A stretch of 64,000 bases of DNA from Leucogyrophana mollusca (taxonomy: Eukaryota; Basidiomycota; Agaricomycetes; Boletales): contig MU266441.1 in assembly GCA_021014945.1 (NCBI GenBank), positions 1-64,000 on the forward strand. Direction: 5' to 3'. Numbering within the stretch: position 1 is the stretch's first letter; the number at the start of each line of letters is the position of its first letter. Positions 27,085 through 61,389 of this stretch are shown here, in pieces. The position numbers and the translations under genes are program-made. The notes under the pieces were generated by a model. The model searched no databases, was not told the DNA's origin, and saw only the letters and a list, made by a program, of their open reading frames with translations.

Positions 27085-27570
27085 GGCCAACGATAAAAGA
27101 ACAGTAATAAAGAGAAGCCAAAAAGAAAACGCGGGAAGGCCCAGTGTCCACAACACAAGATGTCCAATGGAGAAAATCTAGTCCATGCCTTCTCGAAACC
27201 ACTCTGCTCGAAGTCGCTCTCAAGGACCACCGACAACAGAATGGGAGGAGAAGCCAGAGGGGAAGAAAAAACATGAGGGTAGCGGCACCAATGTCCAGGT
27301 ATGTGATGTCCGATGAAGGTCTAGCCCATGCGTTCCCGAGAACCACTCCGCGATCGAGGTCACTCTCAAGGACCACCGACAACAGAACGGGAGGGAAGCC
27401 AGAGGGGAAGAAAATAGATGAAGGCAACGGCACCAGTGTCCAAGATATGTGATGTCCGAGAGAGATAATTGTCCAACAGCATAGTCCACACTTTCCTAAA
27501 ATTCCGAGGTCGAGGCCGCTCTGAAGGGCCTCCGACAACAGAATCGCAGGAGAGGGCGGACAAAAAGAAA
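27085..27570. repeat. imperfect tandem repeat (minisatellite), units of about 145-156 bases
   Basis: The block containing the motif CTCTCAAGGACCACCGACAA starts at 27,217 and again at 27,363. A diverged form (CTCTGAAGGGCCTCCGACAA) starts at 27,519. Each copy is followed by an A/G-rich segment (GGAAGCCAGAGGGGAAGAAA in the better units) and then a GTCCA...ATGTCC segment. A truncated first unit begins near 27,085. The repeats are open in several frames, but no start or domain suggests coding. Confidence 0.75.
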
Positions 27571-46272: not shown

Positions 46273-48608
46273 ATGTCTTCAACGCAACAGAGCACGGCAG
46301 CGACGGGGACAGATGAGCACGAGCTCGACAGATCCGCCCGGAATGGCGTATCAGAGCTTGAAATGCCAACTGCAAATCAAACAGAGGGCCGAAACCTAGA
46401 CATCGAGCACGTAGTCGTTAAAGAAGACCCTCGTAAATGGGGACGAGCCAGAAAGGTATGTAACTTTGCGCTAAAATACTCATACTCGCTAGAATTTTAA
46501 AATGTGATGTTCACTTTTTCTATTCAGAATGTCACGTTATGGATTGTGTCGGGATCCGCCATGGTTTCTGGGCTAGCTACCAATATACAGAACCGTACGT
46601 CCTTCATGAGATTTTGTGTTCCCGGTTTCTGAAGAGTGCGCCGCTTTTACCAGCTGCCAACGCGCAGATAGAACAAGACCTACATGCCTCTAGCGGGCAG
46701 ATAAGCTGGACACTAGCCGCCTTCATCATCATACAAGGAAATTTCCCTCTCATCTGGAGCGCCGTCAGCGAGATCAAAGGTCGAAAGGTTCGTCAAATTT
46801 TTGATGTACCTGGGTGCTTTCTTAGGATATGATTATCTGCACCACGACTATAGCTGGTATATGTAATAGCTGCAATATTATTCCTGATAGGTTCGACAGT
46901 GGTGGCTACAGCACAAAGCATCCAACTCGCTATTGGCATGCGAGCCCTTCAAGCCGTAGGGTAAGTGTGATACCTCAACGTCCGCTTGCATTAGACGAAA
47001 GGTAAAATATATAGGTCGAGCGCTGCGATGTCAATCTCCGCTGCTACTCTAGCAGACATGTACGACTCGCACGAGCGAGGTACGAAAATGGGCATTTTTT
47101 ACGCGGCACCGCTATTAGGTCTGTCCGTTTCTATTATGTAAAATGGTACATATGTCATGCTAACGGGTTGGTTGGGCCCGCTCGACTGCGTTCTTACTAG
47201 GTCCTGCAGTTGGGCCTTTGCTCGGTATTATTGATCTACAAACCCTAAGACACGGTCAGGCTGACACTGGACCATCGCTACTTTTTGTTCTTAGGGGGTG
47301 GATTAGCTCAAGCCTTCAATTGGCGAGCGGATTTCTACCTGCTGGTGATCTTGGACGCCATCATTTTGATGGCATTTCTATTCCTATTCAAGGACACGTT
47401 CCGGCGCGAACGTAGCTTGACATATCAAATTGCTCTCCGACGCCGCCTGAAAGAACAAGAGCTTAGCCGACTGAAAGGCGCGAGCGATACTACAATGGCC
47501 GCGTGTTCCGCTGAAAAGCATGAAGCGGTGGAAAGGGGCGAAAGCAAAGCAAGCCACACCAATTCTCGCGATATCGAGGCTAATGTAGAGGTGTCGCTGC
47601 CTGCGCAAGGGCTGCCCGAAGTGAAGCTCTCTCTTACAGATGTAAATCCACTACCTCCCCTCCTCAAGATTCTGCAGCGAAAGAATAACGTGGCCGTTCT
47701 CTGCTCGAGTGGTGAGTTTGGGTGACAAGCAGTGGTGCTTAGTCTGACCAAATCTGGGATGCACAAGCTCTCATATTCGGGTTCAGTTATACTATCGTGT
47801 ATACCTGCGCCCGGACACTCGCCAACTCATACCATTATGATGCTCTTCAAACAGGTCTTGTCCTCCTTTCTTTCGGGATCGGTGCGTCTGTTCCTCTTGG
47901 TGTCAGGGAACGCAGCTTACGGCATCCAAGGGAATATTATGGGCAGTATCTTTGGAGGTCGCTGGTCTGATCGAGAACTCGCACGGCTTAAAGACAGGAA
48001 TGGCGGAAAATGGAACCCAGAGGTAAATTCTATCATACTCGGCAGAGCTGGACACCGAGACTGCTTTAGATGCGACTCGAGAGCACAAAGCTAGCTATGT
48101 TGTGGCTGCCCCCTTCCGTTCTTGGATACGCTTGGGTCTGTCAAAAACACGTCCACATTGCGGCTGTTTGCGTTATGCTTTTCCTATCAGGGTTTTTTGC
48201 CATGTGAGTACCTTTTCTCCAGTCGTAGCCACTCTTCTAGCCGAGCTGACCGAACGCTTAGATGGATGTACACCAGTACACTCGCCTACATCGTAGACGC
48301 AAACACTGGTCGTTCCTCCACGGCCGTCGCGAGTAACAGTTCTTTCCGGGGGACGGTGGGCTTTGTCGCTGCGGAGATAGCTGTCCCTCTCCAGGTAGGA
48401 GCGATAGTCAATTACTCCGTTCCGTCCTCTCACAACAATACCACGCTGTCTTTCCTGCGTCACCCAGGATGCCATTGGGGATGGGGGGCTATATACGCTC
48501 TGGGCCGGCTTGTTGATAATCATGGAGTTACTGATATTGCTCGCACTGTACAAGGGGGAGGCATGGAGACGAGACCTCGAAGAACAGGAGAACGCTAAAG
48601 CTGAATAA
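46273..48608 (+). CDS. DHA1-family MFS drug-type transporter 1
   Basis: The start is MSSTQQSTAATGTDEHELD, with a hydrophilic N-terminus ending VVVKEDPRKWGRARK. Membrane segments follow in the usual 12-helix order: TLWIVSGSAMVSGLATNIQ, SWTLAAFIIIQGNFPLIWS with motif-A-like SAVSEIKGRK, LVYVIAAILFLIGSTVVATA, AAMSISAATLADMYDSHERG and FYAAPLLGPAVGPLLGGGLA. The conserved loop LFKDTFRRERSLTYQ leads into a long charged central loop, then VNPLPPLLKILQRKNNVAVL and helices 7-12, ending LWAGLLIIMELLILLALYKG. Introns of about 55-90 bases separate roughly ten exons, and all can be joined in frame. Relatives (Qdr/Dtr/Aqr type) are proton antiporters exporting drugs, weak acids or polyamines at the plasma membrane. 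It is the first of three tandem copies and most similar to the second. Confidence 0.88.
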
Positions 48609-49648
48609 TATCCGTACTTCGGGCCTTGAGGGTGCTCTGGTATTTGGGTCAACCTGCCATGTCTGACTTCTCCGCCGTTCCGAAGCCACGCTTTTACTAC
48701 ACTTAGAGTCACGGAATTCATTGACGGTATGTCACCCTGGTCCAATACTCTGGTCACACTCTCGGGACTTTGAGCTACCCTATCGCAAAATTAATAAAGC
48801 CGGTCGACGGAGGCGCTTTCCGCTTACTTACCTTGCCGTATACTGTGCAGTAGTAACGTTGGTTCATCTCCTGGACTGCGACTCAGGGACAAGTTTCCTG
48901 ACACACTACCGCGGGTTTTTGCCGAATCAAAAGTATCAAAAGATCTCCGCGTCCAAATAATTTACCTGAGGTTTCCTGCCGAAACCCTAACGGCCCACCT
49001 GCGGGCGTGCTGCCTCGAGTTATCGTTGCACTGACTTTTAATTTGAATCGCAAACTCGGGCGCAATTGTTCGATCATATTAGTCATCCGGAGGCGTGCTA
49101 AAATTGAAGCTACGAACTTGAAGTATGAACTTTGATCAAGCCAAGTTGAAGCACGATGTTCATATAACTTTCGTACTGGCCTGTTGCCCGGCTCACTGCC
49201 ACTTTGTGGTCGGACGACTTGGATTCGCTCATCGCACGAAAACCGGTGACCGGAAGGCCATCGAAATGGAAGACAGATAGTATGTAAAACTTACACACTT
49301 TGCCCCCTCCTGGCATTATTTTGCTGCCAAATTGGCGTCGACTGCCGCTGTGACATGTACAGGCTGCGTTACTCGCCGCTCGAAACAAACCGAGATCACA
49401 CTTTGGACCCTGCCCGCAGGTTGCATGACTGCTAGTTAGCTGTCTTACTACCTGCTGAATCGAAGACATGGACTCAGCGTGGAGTCCGCTAAGGGCGAAT
49501 TTTGCTCTGCCGAGTTTACAAGGCAAATCTGCTTGCAGGTATCGGTGGACTCTGGGCAAACACTGGTATAAGAAACCTATGTGTATTACCATCCGATGTA
49601 TACTTCATCCCACCAAGCTAACATCCACTTCCGCTACCTCTTGTAACG
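48609..49648. other. intergenic between MFS copies 1 and 2
   Basis: No gene recognised in this 1 kb. It does not show obvious similarity to the upstream region of MFS copy 1, apart from the immediate start region. Confidence 0.4.
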
Positions 49649-52020
49649 ATGGCTGCGACACAACAGGAGACTTCGGTAACTGATACTGTTAATTCCACGA
49701 AGTCATGTAGCACCGACTCGGACGTTGTGAATCCCGCACTCGGCAAGCCATCTTTGACGGTGCAGTCAGCTGAGGAACCCATCAAGCTGGACATCGAGCA
49801 TGTCCCTGTAGAAGATGATCCTCGTCAATGGGGACGAGTTAGAAAGGTACTATTTCATACATTATTGTAAAATTGTTATAATATTAATTCAACCTTTATT
49901 TCGACGCAGAACACCACATTGTGGCTCATATCGGGGGCGGCCATGATATCTGGATTGGCTGCCAACATTCAAAATCGTATGCGACTATATACATTTCTCG
50001 TTATGTTGTAGTTTCTCGTGACTGAGCTTTTTCTTTACAGCGGCGAATGCAGAAATCCAACGCGACCTGCATGCTACGAGTGGAGAGATAAGCTGGACCC
50101 TGGCTGCCTTCATCGTCATACAGGGAAATTTCCCCTTGATCTGGAGCGCTGTTAGCGAAATTCAAGGCCGAAAGGTTCGTGGATGTTGCCGCGCGCCTGC
50201 AGCCTTTTTACAATTTACGGTTTTCGCCTACGGGATCCTTATAGCCGGTATATTTGATAGCCACGATATTGCTGGCCGCAGGTTCAACACTTGTAGCTAC
50301 GGCGCAGTCTATAAAACTTGCGATAGGCATGCGGGCTCTGCAAGCCGCAGGGTGAGCGCACCACGGCACACTCGTGGGCTTGCATCCCTGATGAGAATGA
50401 AATCCGATCGTAAAAGGTCGAGCGCCGCGATGTCTATCTCTGCCGCTACATTAGCAGATATGTACGACTCACATGAGCGAGGTTCAAAGATGGGCATTTT
50501 CTACGCAGCACCACTATTAGGTCACCCCGTCCTTTGTGTGGCAAAGGAAATGGTTTAACTCATCTCTTTTCAACTCTAGGTCCGGCTCTAGGCCCTCTTA
50601 TTGGTAAGTTTTTCCGTGTTGTTGACTGAGATGCCATGCTTACGCAAAGCTTGGGCGGCACGCTGCCTTTTGGTTTTGGTAGGGGGTGTTCTCGCTCAAA
50701 GCTTTAACTGGCGCGCGAATTTCTACTTCTTGGTAATCTGCAGCACCATCATTTTGATGGCTTTCTTGTTCTTGTTCAAAGATACCTTCCGCCGTGAGCG
50801 TAGCCTGACCTATCAGGGCGCTCTGCGGAGGCGTATGAGAGAACTCGAGATGGATCGACAGAAGAGCTCGAGCGAAACTACGATCGCGGCACTTGGGAAA
50901 GAAACCCCCGAACAGAAGGGAGAAGGGAACGGCCAGGTTACTCTCCCCGAAGTGAAAGATATCGAAGCTGATGGGAGGGCACATATACCTGCGCCAGCTA
51001 TCGCCGAAACGAAGCTATCATTCACCGACGTTAATCCCTTCCCACCTCTTCTTCAGATCCTCCGGCGAAAAAATAATGTGGCCATCCTTGCTTCCAGCGG
51101 TCAGTGCTGTCATCTTCCTCAGCGGTCTATCTAAATAACTTCACCTTTTTCCCATTCGCATATATAAGCTTTGATCTTTGGTTTCAGTTATAGTATATCT
51201 TATACTTGCGCGCAAACTCTTGCAAAGTCGTACGATTACGACGCACTTAAAACAGGTCTTGTTCTGCTTTCCTTCGGGATTGGTGCGTATTGAATCTCGT
51301 TTCCATCACGCTTTCGTGTTTATATCATTCCAGGGAGCATGACCGGCAGCGTTTTTGGAGGTCGCTGGTCCGACCGAGAACTCGCGCGACTCAAGGCGGA
51401 GAGTGATGGAAAATGGAACCCGGAGGTATATTTCCTCTTCGGAACAAACACGCAGCTGCTGAAAACCCGCTTTAGATGCGAATTGCAAGCACAAAGCTAG
51501 CTATGCTATGGCTGCCCCCTTCCGTTCTGGGATACGCTTGGGTGTGCGAAAAACACGTTCACGTCGCGGCCATTTGTATTATGCTGTTCCTCTCCGGGTT
51601 CTTCTCTGTGTCAGTGAATTCGCTCTTGACTTCCTCTGTGAGTTCTGACATTGAGCACTGTGTACAAAGATGGATGTACACGAGTGCGCTTGCGTATATT
51701 GTGGATGCGAACACGGGACGTTCCTGCTCAGCCGTGGCAACCAATAGCTCGTTTCGAGGAACCTTGGCATTCATCGCTGCTGAGGTCGCAATCCCTCTTC
51801 AGGTTGGCGCAATATCATTAGGCTCAGTTTACTCCCATCATGGTGGTGACCTCTGACACGCTGTTTCCAGGATGCCATCGGAGATGGCGGGCTATACACC
51901 CTCTGGGCGGGCTTATTGGTAATCATGGAATTGCTCATATTGCTCGTGTTACGCAAAGGGGAGAAGTGGCGACAAGAGAGCGAAGAGCAGGAGAACCGCC
52001 GGAGTGCGGCCATCCAATAA
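49649..52020 (+). CDS. DHA1-family MFS drug-type transporter 2
   Basis: It starts MAATQQETSVTDTVNSTKSC and shares IKLDIEHVPVEDDPRQWGR with its neighbours. It has the same helix order and exon structure as copy 1: TLWLISGAAMISGLAANIQ, SWTLAAFIVIQGNFPLIWS, VYLIATILLAAGSTLVATA, AAMSISAATLADMYDSHERG, GPALGPLIGGVLAQSFNWR and FKDTFRRERSLTYQGALRRR. The central loop carries KETPEQKGEGNG, then VNPFPPLLQILRRKNNVAIL, FGGRWSDRELARLKAESDG and the end EKWRQESEEQENRRSAAIQ. All introns can be removed in frame, so the gene looks functional. Close similarity to copy 1, including intron positions, shows tandem duplication. The substrate is unknown. Confidence 0.88.
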
Positions 52021-52797
52021 GGCGGCCGACCTTAGGTTGTGTTGCGAGGTTGTCGGGCGGTAGATTCGGCCGGGCTATGGGTGGAATTGCATATATTCAT
52101 TGGTCTTATTATTGCTCGCTGTTGTTATATCGTTCGGGCTATGTGGAATGTTATCTACTATAGTTATGTAGGCGCTGGGTGTACTGGTAGTAGTAGCTTA
52201 TGTAAAACCCCGCGCCATATGCAGAATAACCTCAACTCTCGACCCAGCCTCAAGGTGTCCATCTTTGGTCCATCTACCAGAACGCCAATATGTCCGCTGT
52301 TACCCAAGCGACAGAGAGCGACAGACACTCTCGCATACCGTGTTTCAAGAAGCTTGCCTCTCTGATTGTACAAATAGTCGATTCGACGGACCCGGCTCTC
52401 CGTGTTCTAAATCCAGCATCTCCGAGTGTTCCCACTCACCTCATATTGGATGAGAGCAGAGTGTCCTTTCGTTTCGGAGCAACAAAATAGTCCCCACGAT
52501 GAAAGGGCTCTCACAAAGCGATCCGGCTCGGCATGATGTGTCAGAAATCCACATTAATATGCAAGCCCAAGATATCACAAGGTTGCTCGTGTCGGCCGTA
52601 TCATCCGACTCGTCTAGCGACCCTTCGACACTCTGCCCAGACTGGATCACGATCCCGGCAACGGAAAGCATCCAACGGAATGTTCACGGTGCTGTTTCTG
52701 GCACACGGTTTGTCATGGAGCTATTCATATATAAGAAGGCCTGACTGCCGACTTCCCCTCACCTATCGGCCTGCTAGACGACTTATCACGACATGTA
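52021..52797. other. intergenic between MFS copies 2 and 3
   Basis: No gene recognised; short frames here have no family features. Confidence 0.4.
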
Positions 52798-54911
52798 ATG
52801 GCAATGGCGAATAGCCAGAGTACGAATTTGGCTCCTACCAGTGCGGAAGCCACCAATGACGCCAACGATCACTTGCAGAAACAACCGCAAGCTTTCGATT
52901 CACTCGAGGAGAAGATTAAGTTAGATATCGAGCACGCCGTCGTTGAAAACGACCCGCGAATATGGTCGATGACGAGGAAGGCACGCTCCTTTATCATGCT
53001 CTGTCCCGCAAGCTCTTGACGGATCCCTTCAGAACCTCGTACTGTGCATTATATCTGGAGCATCCATGATTGCGGGTTTATCGGCCAATATCCAGAACCG
53101 TAGGCCTCCACATCTACTAGACTGGTCAGAAATGGCCGACTAACCTCACAAACTGCCAGCGGCCAACGCGCAGATTGAACAAGAGCTCCATGCTTCAAGC
53201 GGGGATATCAGCCTTAGCTTATCGTTATTTATCCTCGTCCAGGGGAATTTCCCTGTGATATGGAGTGCAGTCAGCGAGATCAAAGGTCGGAAGGTAAGTG
53301 TAGGTCCTCAGCGTCTTATTTGGCTTGAATAACTTGTTGGGACAGCTGGTGTACCTTCTGTCAGTGGCTCTTTTCACCCTTGGCTCCGTCATTGTGGCGA
53401 TATCCAAAACCATAGGATTGGTTATCGGCATGCGCATCGTACAGGCAGCAGGGTAATTATCCGCCGCTTCTGTTCCCACTTTCCCCCTTGACTAGTCGCG
53501 TTATACTAGATCTAGCGCCGTCATCGCCATCGGAGCGGCTACTCTTGCCGACATCTACGAGCCCCACCAGCGCGGTACCATGATGGGAGTCTACTATTCT
53601 GCACCACTATTAGGACCGTCCATCGGCCCACTTTTGGGCGGCGGGCTGACACAAGGATTGGACTGGCGCGCTGTCTTCTGGTTCTTGGTCATCTGGGGCG
53701 CAATCATCTTCCTGGCGTTCTTGATCCTGTTCAAAGACACTTTCCGCCGCGAACGTAGCCTTACGTACCAGAATGTGCTCAAGCGTCGAATCAGGGAGCA
53801 GTCATTGGCGAAATCGAAGGCGAACAGCCAGGATACGGTGATTCACCCGTCCGCTGAAGAGCCCAAGGGGACGAAGAATGAGCGCGCACCTGAAGTTCAG
53901 GACCTGGAAGCACAGGCTACGATCCCTGTACCTAGTGCCTCCGCGATCAAAGAAGTCACGCTTTCCCTCGCCGATGTTAATCCTTTCCCGCCTTACCTGA
54001 AAATCATTGCAAGAAAGAATAATTTTGCCATCCTTGTCCCGTCTGGTCAGTTTCTCGGACTTTGAAAGACGGCTCCTGTACGCCTTGGGCCTTTGCCTGG
54101 TGCTAATTGTTTTGATGTGCAGGTCTACTCTTCGCTTTTAGCTTCAGTATCGCTTACACATGTGCGCGGACTCTTGCTGACTCATATCAATACGATGCCT
54201 TGAAAACTGGGCTCGTACTTCTGGCATATGGAATAGGCATGTAAAGTTTGACTGGTATCACTCCCTGGGCTGAGCTTCCTTTGCGTTCGTTTGAAGGCAG
54301 TGTTGCGGGAAGCATACTTGGTGGTCGGTGGTCTGACAGGACATTGGCGAGGCTCAAAGCTAAGCACGGCGGGAAAAGCTATCCGGAGGTGCGCACCGTA
54401 TCGACCCTCACTAAGAGTCGCTGGCTCACAGTCACTCCAAACAGATGCGACTTGAGAGTACAAAGGTGGCCATGTGGTGGCTCCCTCCCTCAGTCATTGG
54501 ATATGCTTGGGTATGCCAAGAACGAGTTCATGTCGCGGCAATGTGTGTAATGCTCTTCCTCGCTGGCTTCTTTTCCATGTCAGTCCTGTTTGGCTCTCTT
54601 TGGGTTTCCGCACTAAACACCTCGTGTTCAGCTGGATATACACCAGCACCCTGGCGTACATCGTAGATGCCAACGTTGGTCGCTCATCGACAGCTGTGGC
54701 GACCAACAGCTCTTTCCGTGGCGCATCAGCATTCGTAGCGGCTGAAGTGGCTGTTCCTCTCCAAGACGCAATTGGCGATGGCGGACTTTATACGCTATGG
54801 GCGGGCTTGTTGATCATCGCACAGCTGCTGATTCTGCTTGTGCTCTATAAGGGGGCGAAATGGCGGGAAGAGAGCGAGGCAAGAGAGAAGCTGAAATCGG
54901 AAAGTCAATAG
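52798..54911 (+). CDS. DHA1-family MFS drug-type transporter 3
   Basis: It starts MAMANSQSTNLAPTSAEATN; a second ATG two codons on is equally possible. It shares IKLDIEHAVVENDPRIW and the family blocks NIQNPANAQIEQELHASSG, LSLFILVQGNFPVIWSAVSE with IKGRK, LVYLLSVALFTLGSVIVAIS, AVIAIGAATLADIYEPHQRG, GPSIGPLLGGGLTQGLDWR, FKDTFRRERSLTYQNVLKRR and ILGGRWSDRTLARLKAKHGG. The ending is ESEAREKLKSESQ. It is more divergent from copies 1 and 2 than those are from each other, and its second helix pair (LSLSLFILVQG) matches the wider DHA1 family better, so it may be the ancestral copy. Exons around the stretch TMMGVYYSAPLLGP are fused here, whereas copies 1 and 2 have an intron at that point. Confidence 0.88.
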
Positions 54912-57192: not shown

Positions 57193-57699
57193 CTTCACAG
57201 AGCGTCAATCATAATTGAATATTTTTCCCCCGCCCTTTTGGTTCAGAATCCGAACATAGACTAACCCCCGCAAGTATATCCCGCTATCCTCATCGTCAAC
57301 TCCAGCGCCGCCAGCGATACAACACTATACAAGCATTTGCTGTCGATTTGTGGCATCTTACCTCAATACACAGCTGATGCAGAGCCATGAAGATGGCCCG
57401 ACGCTATAGCGACTCATACAAGTTCATGGTGACATCAGGTGTTAGGATAGCTTTGATGGGCAGACCTGGGCAGACATGACTTGGTATGCTTACGCTCATA
57501 CTGTCTATTCTGAATATCCAGATTTATTGAACAGATATGCATATTTATTCATGAATACCTGTTCGTTAGCGTCGGCGACGATCGTCCCGTTGTGCGCCAG
57601 CCACCGATGACATCAACGGCTGGCTCGATGACGCACCCGCGTTGAGCCCTGCCAGCCGCCGACGCCTGTGATTGGTCCCCCGTTGCCCTCCCCAGAGCG
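57193..57699. other. intergenic upstream of the repeat-protein gene
   Basis: No gene recognised. An ATTGG (inverted CCAAT) lies at about 57,671, shortly before the TATA box of the following gene. Confidence 0.4.
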
Positions 57700-57707
57700 T
57701 ATAAATA
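57700..57707 (+). promoter_or_regulatory. TATA box of the repeat-protein gene
   Basis: TATAAATA lies 105-112 bases before the ATG at 57,812. An inverted CCAAT sits about 30 bases upstream, and a long pyrimidine-rich stretch (57,710-57,775) sits downstream. This is the layout of a strong fungal promoter, suggesting high expression. Confidence 0.65.
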
Positions 57708-57811: not shown

Positions 57812-59642
57812 ATGGTCCAACTCGCCCCTCGCTTCACTGTTCTCCTTGCACTCTGCCTCGTCGCTGCTGCCACTCCCGCTCCCGTTACGCCTGCGCCCGC
57901 GCCGTCCCCAACCCCCAATCTTGCCGCACCCCACGTCTCCCTCAGCCTTGGCGACTCTCATGTAAGCACTTTTCGTCGATCTATTACAACAGCTGATGTG
58001 CTGACTGTACTGCCGCATGCTATCACAGAAGGTGGTCAGGAGGGACCCCCCTTTCGCCGCCCCCGAACAACGTCTCGCCAACATTACCTTGGCTAACAAC
58101 GGGACAGATGCTCACGCTACCAATAAGCAAGCTCGCGGCGCAATTCCCATTAACATCGAAACACCGGGAACCGCCGGGGGTAATTCCACCTCCAAGTCCA
58201 CGGCTCCCGCTAAGCGCGCGAAGGACGGCGGAAAGACCAAGGCACCGAAAGCGCCTGTAGCTCTCCCGTCCCTCAAGGCACCCGCGCGCAGACAGCAAGG
58301 GAAGGCGGGGATCAACATACTTCCTGGAACACCCGGACCTCGGATTTCGGAGAGGGACGGCAAGGGAAAGAGGTATGACGATGGCCAGTACCACCCGAAT
58401 CCCGCATACGATGACGGTCAGTACCACCCCGGAGAGAAACATTCGACAGGAACTGCCACCACCGACTCACCTCCTGCGTCTGGACCGTCTCCTACTTTCG
58501 ACGATGGTCAGTACCACCCCAACTCTGCTCTCAACAGCGGTATGTACACTCCGGGCGTGGATATTCCCGCCCCATCGTCATCAACCACTAGCGGCGCCGC
58601 TCCAAGTGACTCTGTGGACTCTGCGGCGGGGGCAGCGGCAGGGGTTTTATCCGGGCTGGGTTCGACGACGGCCGCTTCGTCGGCTACGCCTACTGGCACT
58701 GGGACGGCGACGGGGACTACGACCTCCACGACTGCTACGTCTACGACATCGGATGGAGTAGCCGATATGGAAGCTGTTGCACAGAGCATGTTGCGCCGCT
58801 ACGATGATGGGCAGTACCACCCCAATCCTAAATTCGATAACGGCCAGTACCATACTAGTACCACCACATCCGCGGCCGCGACTGCTTCCCCATCCAGCTC
58901 TGGGGACTCCTCGCAAATCGTCGATTTGGGACTGAACCGTCGAAATGACGACGGACAATATCACCCTGACCCGAAGTTTGATGACGGTCAGTACCACCCG
59001 TCTTCTCAGTTCGACGATGGGCAATATCACCCAGACGCCAAATTCGATAACGGAATGTACCACGGGAATCGCAGGTCGGACGACGGTCAATACCACCCCG
59101 ACCCCAAGTTCGACAATGGTCAGTACCACCCCTCGTCTAACACAAAGTCATTCGACGATGGACAATACCACCCCGATCCCAAAATCGACAACGGAATGTA
59201 CCACCCGAGTCGTAGGTCGGATGACGGTCAATACCACCCCGATCCCAAGTTCGACAATGGCCTGTACCATCCTTCAACTGGTACGAAGTCGTTCGACGAT
59301 GGGCAATATCACCCCGATCCCAAATTCGATAACGGGAAGTACCATGGAAATCGTAGGTCAGACGACGGTCAATACCACCCTGACCCCAAGTTCGACGATG
59401 GTCAGTACCACCCCTCGTCTGACACAAAGTCATTCGACGATGGGCAATACCACCCCAACCCCAAATTCGACAACGGAATGTACCACCCGAGTCGTAGGTC
59501 GGATGACGGTCAGTACCACCCCAATCCCAAGTTTGATAACGGGCAATATCACCCTACATCGGGGACGACTCCAGGGCAGACTTTTGACGACGGACAGTAC
59601 CACCCAGACCCCAAATTCGACGACGGGAAGTACCACGGTTAG
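57812..59642 (+). CDS. secreted DDGQYH-repeat protein, candidate Kex2-processed repeat peptide precursor
   Basis: Two exons (57812-57961, 58029-59642) give 587 residues. A signal peptide (FTVLLALCLVAAATPAP) is followed by a Pro/Ala-rich region, a Gly/Lys-rich middle with N-glycosylation sites (NITLANNGT), and then the repeat array. The repeat unit is D-D/N-G-Q/M/L/K-Y-H, usually followed by P. About 25 good copies occur plus one degenerate one (NSGMYTPG). They alternate as DDGQYHP(D/N)PKF then DNGMYH or DDGQYH. Several pairs are preceded by dibasic sites (GKGKR, MLRR, LNRR, GNRR, SRR), the cleavage signature of the Golgi protease Kex2. Thr/Ser/Ala-rich low-complexity segments interrupt the array. 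Signal peptide plus Kex2-punctuated repeats fit the KEP class, which includes dikaritin RiPP precursors with core Tyr. Asp and His in each unit could alternatively bind metal or act as a wall component. No cysteines were seen in the array. Confidence 0.85.
58374..59639 (+). repeat. coding tandem array of DDGQYHP modules
   Basis: The array encodes the repeated modules of the preceding gene. Unit spacing is commonly 10-11 codons within a pair, with longer pairs including N-T-K-S-F or R-R-S linkers. Nucleotide identity between units is high towards the 3' end (59,080-59,640), suggesting recent expansion or homogenisation; the first units (58,374-58,560) are more diverged and separated. Confidence 0.85.
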
Positions 59643-60510: not shown

Positions 60511-61389
60511 ATGCTTCAAGTGGCTTCTTGCCTTCTGGCCCTCGCTGCCATTGTGCAGGGTGAGTTTTTCACAGGCTTCTCCGGCTGAGCTCATTTTGTT
60601 ATCTGCACACAGCGGTGCCCGCGGACACTCTCGTTGGTTTACAAGCACTTTCCCGTCGCAACAGTTCCGACGACGGATTCTATCCCCCACAGTGCAAGTC
60701 ATTTTGTGAGCGAGCAAGCATTGACGTATGTACTACGCGGCATCCTATGCAGTAAGTTTGAGGCTTAAGCTCGCGTATCTTGTAGAACTGCGACAATGTC
60801 CCAGCTGCAAAGTGGCACGCTTGTCATTGCGCTCCAGCCGTCGGAACGAACCTTGGAAACTGCGAGAGCTGCTTAGTTGCACACAACTGGTTCAACGTGA
60901 CCTCAGCGCAGACTCTCGTAGACCGTAGGCCCGTCTGCCTTTCCCTCCTGTTCGATGCTGACTTGGCGTAGAGTACAACAAAGTCTGCGGTACATCTGTG
61001 ACTGTGTGTGCGCCGATCGGGCTCTCGTTTTCGCTTGATGGATCAAGGACTCATAATCCACTTTCTAGGTCGACCCCTCCCACTTCATGAATTCGACAAC
61101 TGGCGGATCTGGCGGATCAAGTGGTGCTCCCACCAGTAGTTCGTCGGGGAGCACCACAGGGGGCACATCCGGAGGTCCATCGAGTGCAAGTGGAGGCCCC
61201 TCTGGTACTTCGACAAGCGGTTCTCCGGGTACTTCGACGGGTAGTTCAGCTGGAGGCTCCCCTACCACCTCTCCTCCCGGAGGTCAAAGCCCATTTGGCA
61301 ACGGTGGTGGGGCCACAGGGCTGAAAGCTGCGGCTGGCCTGGCGATAGGGCTTGCCTCGGCTGCCACTGTCGGCCTTCTCGTATTTTAA
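60511..61389 (+). CDS. Cys-rich secreted protein, probably GPI-anchored
   Basis: Five exons join in frame: 60511-60559, 60613-60725, 60786-60924, 60972-61003 and 61069-61389, giving 217 residues. A signal peptide (MLQVASCLLALAAIVQAVPA) is followed by a dibasic site and LSRRNSSDDGFYPPQC. The mature domain has eight Cys (CKSFC, NC, CHC, NCESC, VC) and N-glycosylation sites (NVT, NST). A Gly/Ser/Thr-rich stalk of about 80 residues follows, and a hydrophobic tail, AAAGLAIGLASAATVGLLVF, is typical of a GPI signal. The Cys spacing resembles a common basidiomycete surface-protein family but not strict CFEM. The protein probably sits on the plasma membrane or wall. Donor/acceptor choices (60,925 and 60,971) give LVDQYNKVCG in frame. 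The RR-N-S-S-DDGFYP segment resembles the repeat of the neighbouring gene. Confidence 0.78.

What the first reader, a model, noticed from the sequence alone, without database searches (positions are those of the whole stretch)
57812..59642. Candidate Kex2-processed repeat peptide (RiPP-like) precursor with about 25 DDGQYH modules
Seen: a signal peptide, one small intron, and a long array of D-D/N-G-[QMLK]-Y-H modules punctuated by KR/RR sites, with no cysteines in the array and a strong TATA/CCAAT promoter. Known: fungal KEP proteins, including dikaritin (ustiloxin-type) precursors, have signal peptide plus Kex2-delimited repeats. Mating-factor and repellent-type peptides share this logic. Inference: processing after R-R or K-R would release 20-45 residue peptides each containing two or more DDGQYHP units. 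The constant Tyr-His could be a modified core or a metal-binding element. No UstYa-like (DUF3328) or other maturation gene was recognised in the window, so it may be a non-RiPP secreted peptide family or have unlinked enzymes.
Basis: partly seen in the sequence, partly recalled or inferred. Interest (0 to 1): 0.85.

Follow-up and report, generated by a model that had tools for sequence, protein, structure and literature searches.

The report
Bolete secreted multi-module repeat peptide precursor
A mushroom-forming fungus encodes a secreted protein that looks built to be cut into several short peptides, each made of repeated "DDGQYHP" units that also turn up in some fungal wall enzymes, insect cuticle proteins and a chitin-binding bacterial protein, so the peptides may coat or knit the cell wall rather than act as toxins or hormones.

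Summary
Exons 57812-57961 and 58029-59642 (67-nt intron) encode 587 aa: a signal-peptide-like start, 25 D-[DN]-G-x-Y-H modules plus one degenerate one, and 10 KR/RR sites, 7 with exactly one residue between site and module. Modules are under purifying selection (pS ~1.0, pN 0.07). One copy was found in the genome. Boletus edulis and Suillus clintonianus relatives share the N-terminus and keep KR/RR before modules, but their predicted peptides carry mostly 2 or 3 modules, not 4. It fits published sequence criteria for a Kex2-processed repeat protein (KEP). The RiPP idea is weak: UstYa matches occur in the genome, none on this contig. The module recurs in Crh-like and AA11 enzymes, arthropod cuticle proteins and a bacterial CBM5/12 protein, but also in bacterial proteins with no chitin link. 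Best reading: precursor of acidic, multivalent wall-matrix peptides. Cleavage and polysaccharide binding are inferred, not shown. Text searches for the motif found no paper about it in the held library.

The parts
57671..57675 (-). inverted CCAAT box (ATTGG on + strand)
   Evidence: sequence only, function not tested
57700..57707 (+). TATAAATA box, about 105 nt before the ATG
   Evidence: sequence only
57812..57961 (+). exon 1 (50 codons); residues 1 to about 20 signal peptide, the rest Pro/Ala-rich
   Evidence: hydropathy and similar N-termini in P0002, P0003, P0007
57962..58028 (+). intron, 67 nt, GTAAGC...CACAG
   Evidence: inferred from splice signals and open frame, no transcript
58029..59642 (+). 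exon 2 with stop codon; rest of the 587-aa precursor
58038..58043 (+). first RR site (residues 54-55), end of a pro-region candidate
58374..58799 (+). N-terminal half of the array: three DDGQYH modules and one NSGMYT, Ser/Thr/Ala-rich linker, bounded by KR (58368-58373) and RR (58794-58799)
58800..58943 (+). predicted peptide 1, two modules, ends at RR
58944..59075 (+). predicted peptide 2, four modules (42 aa + RR)
59076..59216 (+). predicted peptide 3, four modules (45 aa + RR)
59217..59357 (+). predicted peptide 4, four modules (45 aa + RR)
59358..59498 (+). predicted peptide 5, four modules (45 aa + RR)
59499..59639 (+). predicted C-terminal peptide 6, four modules (47 aa), ends FDDGKYHG

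Best explanation
The gene encodes a secreted KEP-type precursor of a Boletales-like mushroom. It enters the secretory pathway, is cut by kexin after KR/RR and probably trimmed by a Kex1-type carboxypeptidase, and releases several acidic, probably disordered peptides, mostly strings of four 11-residue modules x-D-[DN]-G-Q-Y-H-P-[DN]-P-K (two or three in relatives). I propose that the peptides, and perhaps the Ser/Thr-rich N-terminal piece, work as multivalent ligands of the chitin/glucan wall matrix: each module makes one weak contact (aromatic residue stacking on a sugar ring, Asp/His/Lys hydrogen bonds) and tandem modules give avidity, so the peptides coat or knit the hyphal wall. Shown here: anatomy, one copy found, relatives, selection on the modules, phase-locked basic pairs, no UstYa match on the contig. 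Inferred: cleavage, secretion, polysaccharide binding, wall role.
For: Processing: in 7 of 10 KR/RR sites exactly one residue separates site and module (P 1.2e-8); in residues 166-587 all 12 Arg are in basic pairs while all 17 Lys are single (P 1.9e-8); relatives keep module-adjacent sites (3 of 5 KR/RR in Suillus P0003, 4 of 12 in Boletus P0002); kexin P-domain matches in the genome (two adjacent pieces on contig C125); AlphaFold2 on three sequences gives mean pLDDT 39.6, no residue at 70 or more, DSSP returned nothing. Wall role: the window's array alone finds, besides Boletales and unnamed proteins, two GH16 proteins (P0009, P0010) and two Jeongeupia CBM5/12 proteins (P0005, P0006). P0009's best PDB match is 6ibu, 'probable glycosidase crf1' (E 1e-75; a Crh chitin-glucan transglycosylase, recalled). 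The profile search added P0037, matching AA11 LPMO structures (E 1e-58 to 2e-30), with two DDGQWHPE modules in its tail, and proteins with the cuticle domain PF00379 (P0020, P0046). Of 45 hits, 15 carry a Pfam label, 9 of those GH16, CBM5/12 or Chitin_bind_4. Module number per predicted peptide differs between species while the module stays, which fits avidity better than a receptor ligand. Tyr is replaced by Trp in some carriers. Precedent for KEP peptides acting on walls: Rep1 of Ustilago maydis (PMC6339444, Background read).
Against: No peptide, transcript or binding data. The Arg/Lys segregation is not significant in the relatives (P 0.22 and 0.13). Bacterial carriers, which lack a fungal kexin (recalled), also show RR/KR directly before modules (e.g. 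P0012, P0013), so a basic pair in that slot is not proof of processing. Six of the 15 Pfam-labelled hits are glycine-zipper proteins (PF05433) with no chitin link. A double-module DNA pattern in one genome each of 84,980 prokaryote species hit only 6 contigs: three Stenotrophomonas ORFs (read; one scanned, glycine zipper), two Desulfovibrionaceae ORFs (no Pfam match for the one scanned and for its like P0019) and Jeongeupia. So only one of three bacterial lineages is chitin-related. The cross-kingdom similarity rests on a short, low-complexity module and may be convergence; profile A1 contained GH16 and Jeongeupia pieces, so one search is biased towards them. In the host genome the one GH16 piece found (contig C126) has no module match on its contig, and outside this gene the module pattern is at chance level (8 matches, against 7 control matches). 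By its Pfam scan the protein itself has no carbohydrate-binding domain.
Confidence: 0.45

Rival explanations
1. Uncleaved or partly cleaved structural wall protein: the repeats stay linked, and basic pairs are incidental variants of a linker slot that normally holds Lys.
For: RR occupies the same slot as PK in the usual linker (PDPKF versus PSRRS); bacterial carriers have RR there; P0011 (unnamed source) has 12 modules, one dibasic site and none module-adjacent.
Against: In the window's array Arg occurs only in pairs, in the C-terminal array the pairs recur every four modules, and two relatives keep module-adjacent pairs; a kexin gene is present and the array is predicted disordered, hence accessible.
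Confidence: 0.17
2. Linear signalling or pheromone-like peptides released by Kex2 and sensed by a receptor.
For: KEP logic is shared with alpha-type pheromones; purifying selection on the module.
Against: Peptides of 42-47 aa exceed the 9-24 aa reported for alpha-type pheromones (PMC6339444); no XA/XP Ste13 dipeptides follow the module-adjacent sites; peptide length and module number differ among Boletales.
Confidence: 0.12
3. PIR-like covalent wall cross-linker: the Gln of D-G-Q forms an ester with beta-1,3-glucan as in yeast Pir4.
For: 16 DGQ motifs in the protein; PIR proteins share signal peptide, Kex2 site and repeats with minimal DGQ, and DGQIQ also occurs in other yeast wall proteins (PMC8975586, passages), a parallel to the module in Crh-like enzymes.
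Against: PIR consensus Q[IV]xDGQ[IVP]Q (PMC12359137, passages) is not matched (Y-H follows DGQ); position 4 is K, M, L or R instead of Gln in 18 of 61 Boletales units; no four-Cys domain (only C15).
Confidence: 0.1
4. Extracellular metal-binding peptides using Asp pairs and His (Cu, Zn, Ca, Fe).
For: Asp-rich, one His per regular module, predicted pI 4.3-5.2 for the six short peptides.
Against: His is replaced by Thr in 7 and Arg in 1 of 61 Boletales units and is often Arg in other carriers; no Cys in the array; no metal-transport domain in the nine neighbouring stretches scanned.
Confidence: 0.09
5. RiPP precursor (dikaritin type) with Tyr cyclised by UstYa/Yb oxidases.
For: Tyr in every module; 34 of 35 UstYa matches in the genome are over the family cut-off.
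Against: None of the 35 lies on this contig, although in print only 22% of KEPs have a DUF3328 neighbour, so absence is weak evidence by itself (PMC7329392 abstract); peptides are long, the module is shared with enzymes, and Trp can replace Tyr.
Confidence: 0.05

Closest known systems
Kex2-processed repeat proteins (KEPs) of Agaricomycetes
   Same: Signal-like N-terminus, repeats bounded by KR/RR, no Pfam domain; C. cinerea, L. edodes and Pleurotus KEPs yield linear peptides (PMC9769878, abstract and Results parts 1-2 of 3 read)
   Different: Each repeat is itself built of 11-residue modules, four in most; the peptides spelled out in the parts read are 6-20 aa and none has this motif
Ustilago maydis Rep1 repellent
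   Same: Basidiomycete KEP with peptides of similar length (37 aa in Rep1) acting on hyphal wall properties (PMC6339444 Background; amyloid-like fibrils, PMC9769878 passage)
   Different: Here peptides are very hydrophilic (GRAVY -1.8 to -1.9 for the four-module ones) and predicted disordered; the Rep1 sequence was not compared
Yeast PIR proteins
   Same: Secreted, Kex2 site, tandem repeats around D-G-Q (passages)
   Different: No Q[IV]xDGQ[IVP]Q consensus, no four-Cys domain, Gln not conserved
Crh-like (GH16) and AA11 enzymes with module tails
   Same: DDG[QM]YHPDPKFDDG or DDGQWHPE tandem modules in the C-terminal tail
   Different: Catalytic domain, one to three modules, no KR/RR directly before them
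Dikaritins (ustiloxin type)
   Same: KEP precursor with Tyr in repeats
   Different: No UstYa match on the contig; long multi-module peptides

Membership tests
KEP (Umemura 2020 definition, PMC7329392 section 13) | at least 3 tandem repeats of 8-100 aa between Kex2 sites KR/KK/RK/RR | tested here: met
   four 42-45 aa four-module repeats bounded by RR on both sides plus a 47-aa C-terminal copy; the author's script was not run
KEP | N-terminal signal peptide | tested here: inconclusive
   hydrophobic N-terminus in four Boletales proteins; SignalP not available
KEP (Le Marquer 2019, PMC6339444 section 24) | at least 3 similar fragments, motifs at least 15% of length | tested here: met
   five similar fragments, residues 356-587, about 40% of the protein; FIMO not run
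KEP | actual Kex2 cleavage and release of peptides | not testable with these tools
   needs mass spectrometry; kexin P-domain matches are present
Dikaritin RiPP | UstYa/DUF3328 gene near the precursor | tested here: not met
   0 of 35 PF11807 matches on contig C115
Dikaritin RiPP | cyclised Tyr-containing core | not testable with these tools
   chemistry not visible in sequence
PIR proteins | Q[IV]xDGQ[IVP]Q repeat | tested here: not met
   repeat is D[DN]GxYHP; consensus from PMC12359137
PIR proteins | C-terminal four-cysteine domain | tested here: not met
   one Cys, in the signal peptide
alpha-type pheromone precursor | 9-24 aa peptides, often with XA/XP Ste13 dipeptides after the cut site | tested here: not met
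   42-47 aa, [YNS]D after the module-adjacent sites; size from PMC6339444
Chitin-binding modules (CBM5/12, Chitin_bind_4) | Pfam match in the protein itself | tested here: not met
   no Pfam family at E<=1; only other carriers of the module have such domains

The most novel reading that the evidence does not exclude
D-[DN]-G-x-[YW]-[HR]-P in an 11-residue tandem is an unrecognised short polysaccharide-matrix module that fungi, arthropods and some bacteria attach to chitin-acting or cuticular proteins (Crh-like, AA11, cuticle-domain proteins, CBM5/12), and boletes secrete it as free, multivalent peptides by cutting a KEP precursor: a soluble, tunable-valency wall cross-linker or coat.
Probability: 0.2. 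Interest if true: 0.8.

Novelty: new variant of a known kind. Interest (0 to 1): 0.5.

Why it matters
KEPs are widespread in fungi and their functions are largely unknown (PMC9769878 abstract). This family gives a concrete, cheap test: the module also occurs in tails of enzymes and in cuticle proteins tied to polysaccharides, so its binding can be measured with synthetic peptides. If it binds chitin or glucan, a matrix tag of about 11 residues shared by three kingdoms would be useful for wall biology and materials, and would assign a structural role to one KEP family.

Tried and rejected
Looked for the motif in print: text searches of the held PMC library for DGQYH-, DGRYRP- and DDGKWH-type strings returned 2, 5 and 0 papers, none on this motif judging by titles and abstract starts in the listing. 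One search (428 papers, 10 listed) listed no paper holding 'kex2-processed repeat'. Suillus, Serpula, Boletus and Boletales are absent from the main texts of PMC7329392 and PMC6339444, and Suillus, Serpula and Boletus from that of PMC9769878. Supplementary tables of the KEP surveys were not open to me and may list these genes.

X278, a putative chitin-binding domain of AA11 enzymes, was checked as a possible name for the module; the passages seen (PMC9550227) describe a small, mainly beta-sheet domain, so I dropped it; its sequence was not seen. Rfam: nothing over threshold in the window. PDB by sequence: no match for the exon-2 protein at E<=1. A fold search was not run because the model has no residue with pLDDT 70 or more. 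Other copies in the genome: none found. P0036 (unnamed source) and P0045 (partial, Fusarium graminearum), with DDGKWHEGKYEG-type repeats and KR sites, match only weakly in the profile search (E 0.06 and 0.9), so common origin is left open, although P0036 and the array align pairwise over repeats.

Serpula P0007 looks cut short at its C-terminus; I did not try to read it further. The organism of the window was not identified; 'Boletales-like' rests only on the relatives.

Full report
What is there. The gene runs from an ATG at 57812 to a stop at 59640-59642, with one 67-nt intron (57962-58028, GTAAGC...CACAG); the spliced frame is 587 aa. TATAAATA lies at 57700-57707 and an inverted CCAAT at 57671-57675. 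The start is signal-peptide-like. There are 25 D[DN]GxYH modules (16 DDGQYH, 3 DNGQYH, 3 DNGMYH, 1 DNGLYH, 1 DNGKYH, 1 DDGKYH) plus one NSGMYT. Spacing is 11 residues for most steps in the C-terminal array. Ten KR/RR sites exist; in seven, exactly one residue lies between site and module.

Is it more than chance? The 16 DDGQYH copies use 11 nucleotide spellings; pairwise among the 25 modules pS is about 1.0 and pN 0.07, so the peptide sequence is under selection and is not a recent DNA repeat only, although the 282-bp and 141-bp tandem units show recent duplication too. The pattern for DDGQYHP has 16 matches in the 32.3-Mb genome, all here. A looser pattern D[DN]GxYH has 33, of which 25 are here and 8 elsewhere, against 7 matches of the reversed control, so nothing outside the gene stands out. 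A protein search of the genome returns only this locus, on both strands.

Relatives. The full-length search gave two proteins: Boletus edulis P0002 and Suillus clintonianus P0003, both Boletales. N-termini align (MVQLAPRF here and in Suillus, MVRLNSRF in Boletus from its Met 110). Suillus has KR with one residue before a module three times (of 5 KR/RR), Boletus KR/RR four times (of 12, overlapping count). Predicted pieces carry mostly 4 modules in the window, 3 in two Suillus peptides (a further long Suillus piece has 6 and a Ser/Thr-rich stretch, like the window's 140-aa piece) and mostly 2 in Boletus. Serpula lacrymans P0007 (Boletales) has a similar N-terminus and 5 modules but no module-adjacent pair.

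The module elsewhere. A search with the array alone (window 58878-59639) returned 8 proteins at E<=0.01: Suillus, Serpula, two unnamed short ones, two GH16 proteins and two Jeongeupia CBM5/12 proteins. A profile made from ten array pieces (A1) returned 45 at E<=1. In both, only about 8,000 best-sharing candidates were scored. Fifteen of the 45 carry a Pfam label: GH16 5, CBM5/12 2, Chitin_bind_4 2, PF05433 6. The GH16 protein P0009 matches structure 6ibu and the unlabelled P0037 matches 7p3u and the AA11 structures 9exj and 4mah. Named arthropod hits include a pupal cuticle protein (Malaya) and a pro-resilin-like barnacle protein. A1 held GH16 and Jeongeupia pieces, so this list is biased towards them; arthropod and AA11 sequences were not in A1. 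Against a general chitin link, a double-module DNA pattern hit 6 contigs in the prokaryote collection: three Stenotrophomonas, two Desulfovibrionaceae and one Jeongeupia. The Stenotrophomonas ORFs are alike and the one scanned is a glycine-zipper protein; the Desulfovibrionaceae ORF scanned has no Pfam match. In the Boletales units (61 counted over five proteins; the count's pattern fixed D/N/E at position 1, D/N/E/S at 2, G at 3 and Y/W at 5) position 4 is Q in 43, position 6 H in 53 and position 7 P in 56; other groups often have R at position 6, and W can stand at position 5.

Processing. In residues 166-587 all 12 Arg are in basic pairs and all 17 Lys are single (P 1.9e-8); the same test is not significant in Boletus (0.22) or Suillus (0.13). 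Bacterial carriers also have RR or KR before modules, so the slot may favour basic residues for other reasons. Kexin P-domain matches, two adjacent pieces and probably one gene, are on contig C125. AlphaFold2 on a three-sequence alignment gave mean pLDDT 39.6, with DSSP returning nothing: consistent with an accessible chain but also with a shallow alignment.

Neighbourhood. Among nine neighbouring stretches scanned are three with MFS_1 matches (one above, two below the family cut-off), a 3'-5' exonuclease domain and a RICTOR_N stretch; the other four have no Pfam match. UstYa: 35 matches in the genome, 34 over cut-off, all on other contigs. Hence no sign of a dikaritin cluster here.

Mechanism. 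I favour release of disordered, acidic, multivalent peptides that associate with the wall matrix. The reasons are the changing number of modules per peptide between genera, the recurrence of the module in proteins acting on or sitting in chitin/glucan matrices, and a precedent for KEP peptides acting on walls (Rep1; PMC6339444 Background). The steps cleavage, secretion and binding are inferred. The PIR parallel (DGQ forming a glucan ester; PMC8975586, PMC12359137, passages) is a sharper but weaker variant, because Gln is not conserved.

Known or new. It meets the sequence criteria for KEPs that I could test, with the signal peptide judged without SignalP and the authors' scripts not run. The motif was not found in the held literature, nor these genera in the main texts of the KEP papers checked; supplements were not seen. 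I rate it a new variant of a known kind: a KEP whose repeats are themselves modular and whose module is shared with matrix proteins.

Noticed in passing
P0005, P0012 and L029 (Jeongeupia naejangsanensis): Two genes about 0.8 kb apart, with an opposite-strand ORF between them, carry tandem DDGQYHP modules; one is fused to CBM5/12 domains.
   Followed up: partly
P0009, P0010, P0016, P0028, P0029: GH16 proteins (one named, Magnusiomyces paraingens; P0009 Crh-like by PDB match) carry one to three modules in their C-terminal tails.
   Followed up: partly
P0020, P0026, P0027, P0034, P0038, P0046: Arthropod-type proteins, some annotated as pupal cuticle or pro-resilin-like or with PF00379, carry DDGxY[RH]-type modules.
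   Followed up: partly
P0036, P0045: Secreted-looking proteins (P0045 partial, Fusarium graminearum; P0036 unnamed) with DDGKWHEGKYEG-type repeats and KR sites, possibly an analogous precursor family.
   Followed up: partly
L027, L028, L031 (Stenotrophomonas): Proteins with DDGQYRPDPRYDDGQYRP directly after the signal-like N-terminus; the one scanned is a glycine-zipper protein.
   Followed up: partly
window 27177-27459: Direct tandem repeat, 146-bp unit, 2.0 copies, 86% matches.
   Followed up: no
window 47285-54065: Three successive ORFs with MFS_1 matches (two below cut-off), possibly a tandem duplication.
   Followed up: no
window 61069-61389: Ser/Gly/Thr-rich ORF end with a hydrophobic tail, GPI-anchor-like, next to the gene.
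   Followed up: no
G000 contigs C364 and C417: Clusters of UstYa-family matches elsewhere in the genome; precursor peptides there not examined.
   Followed up: no
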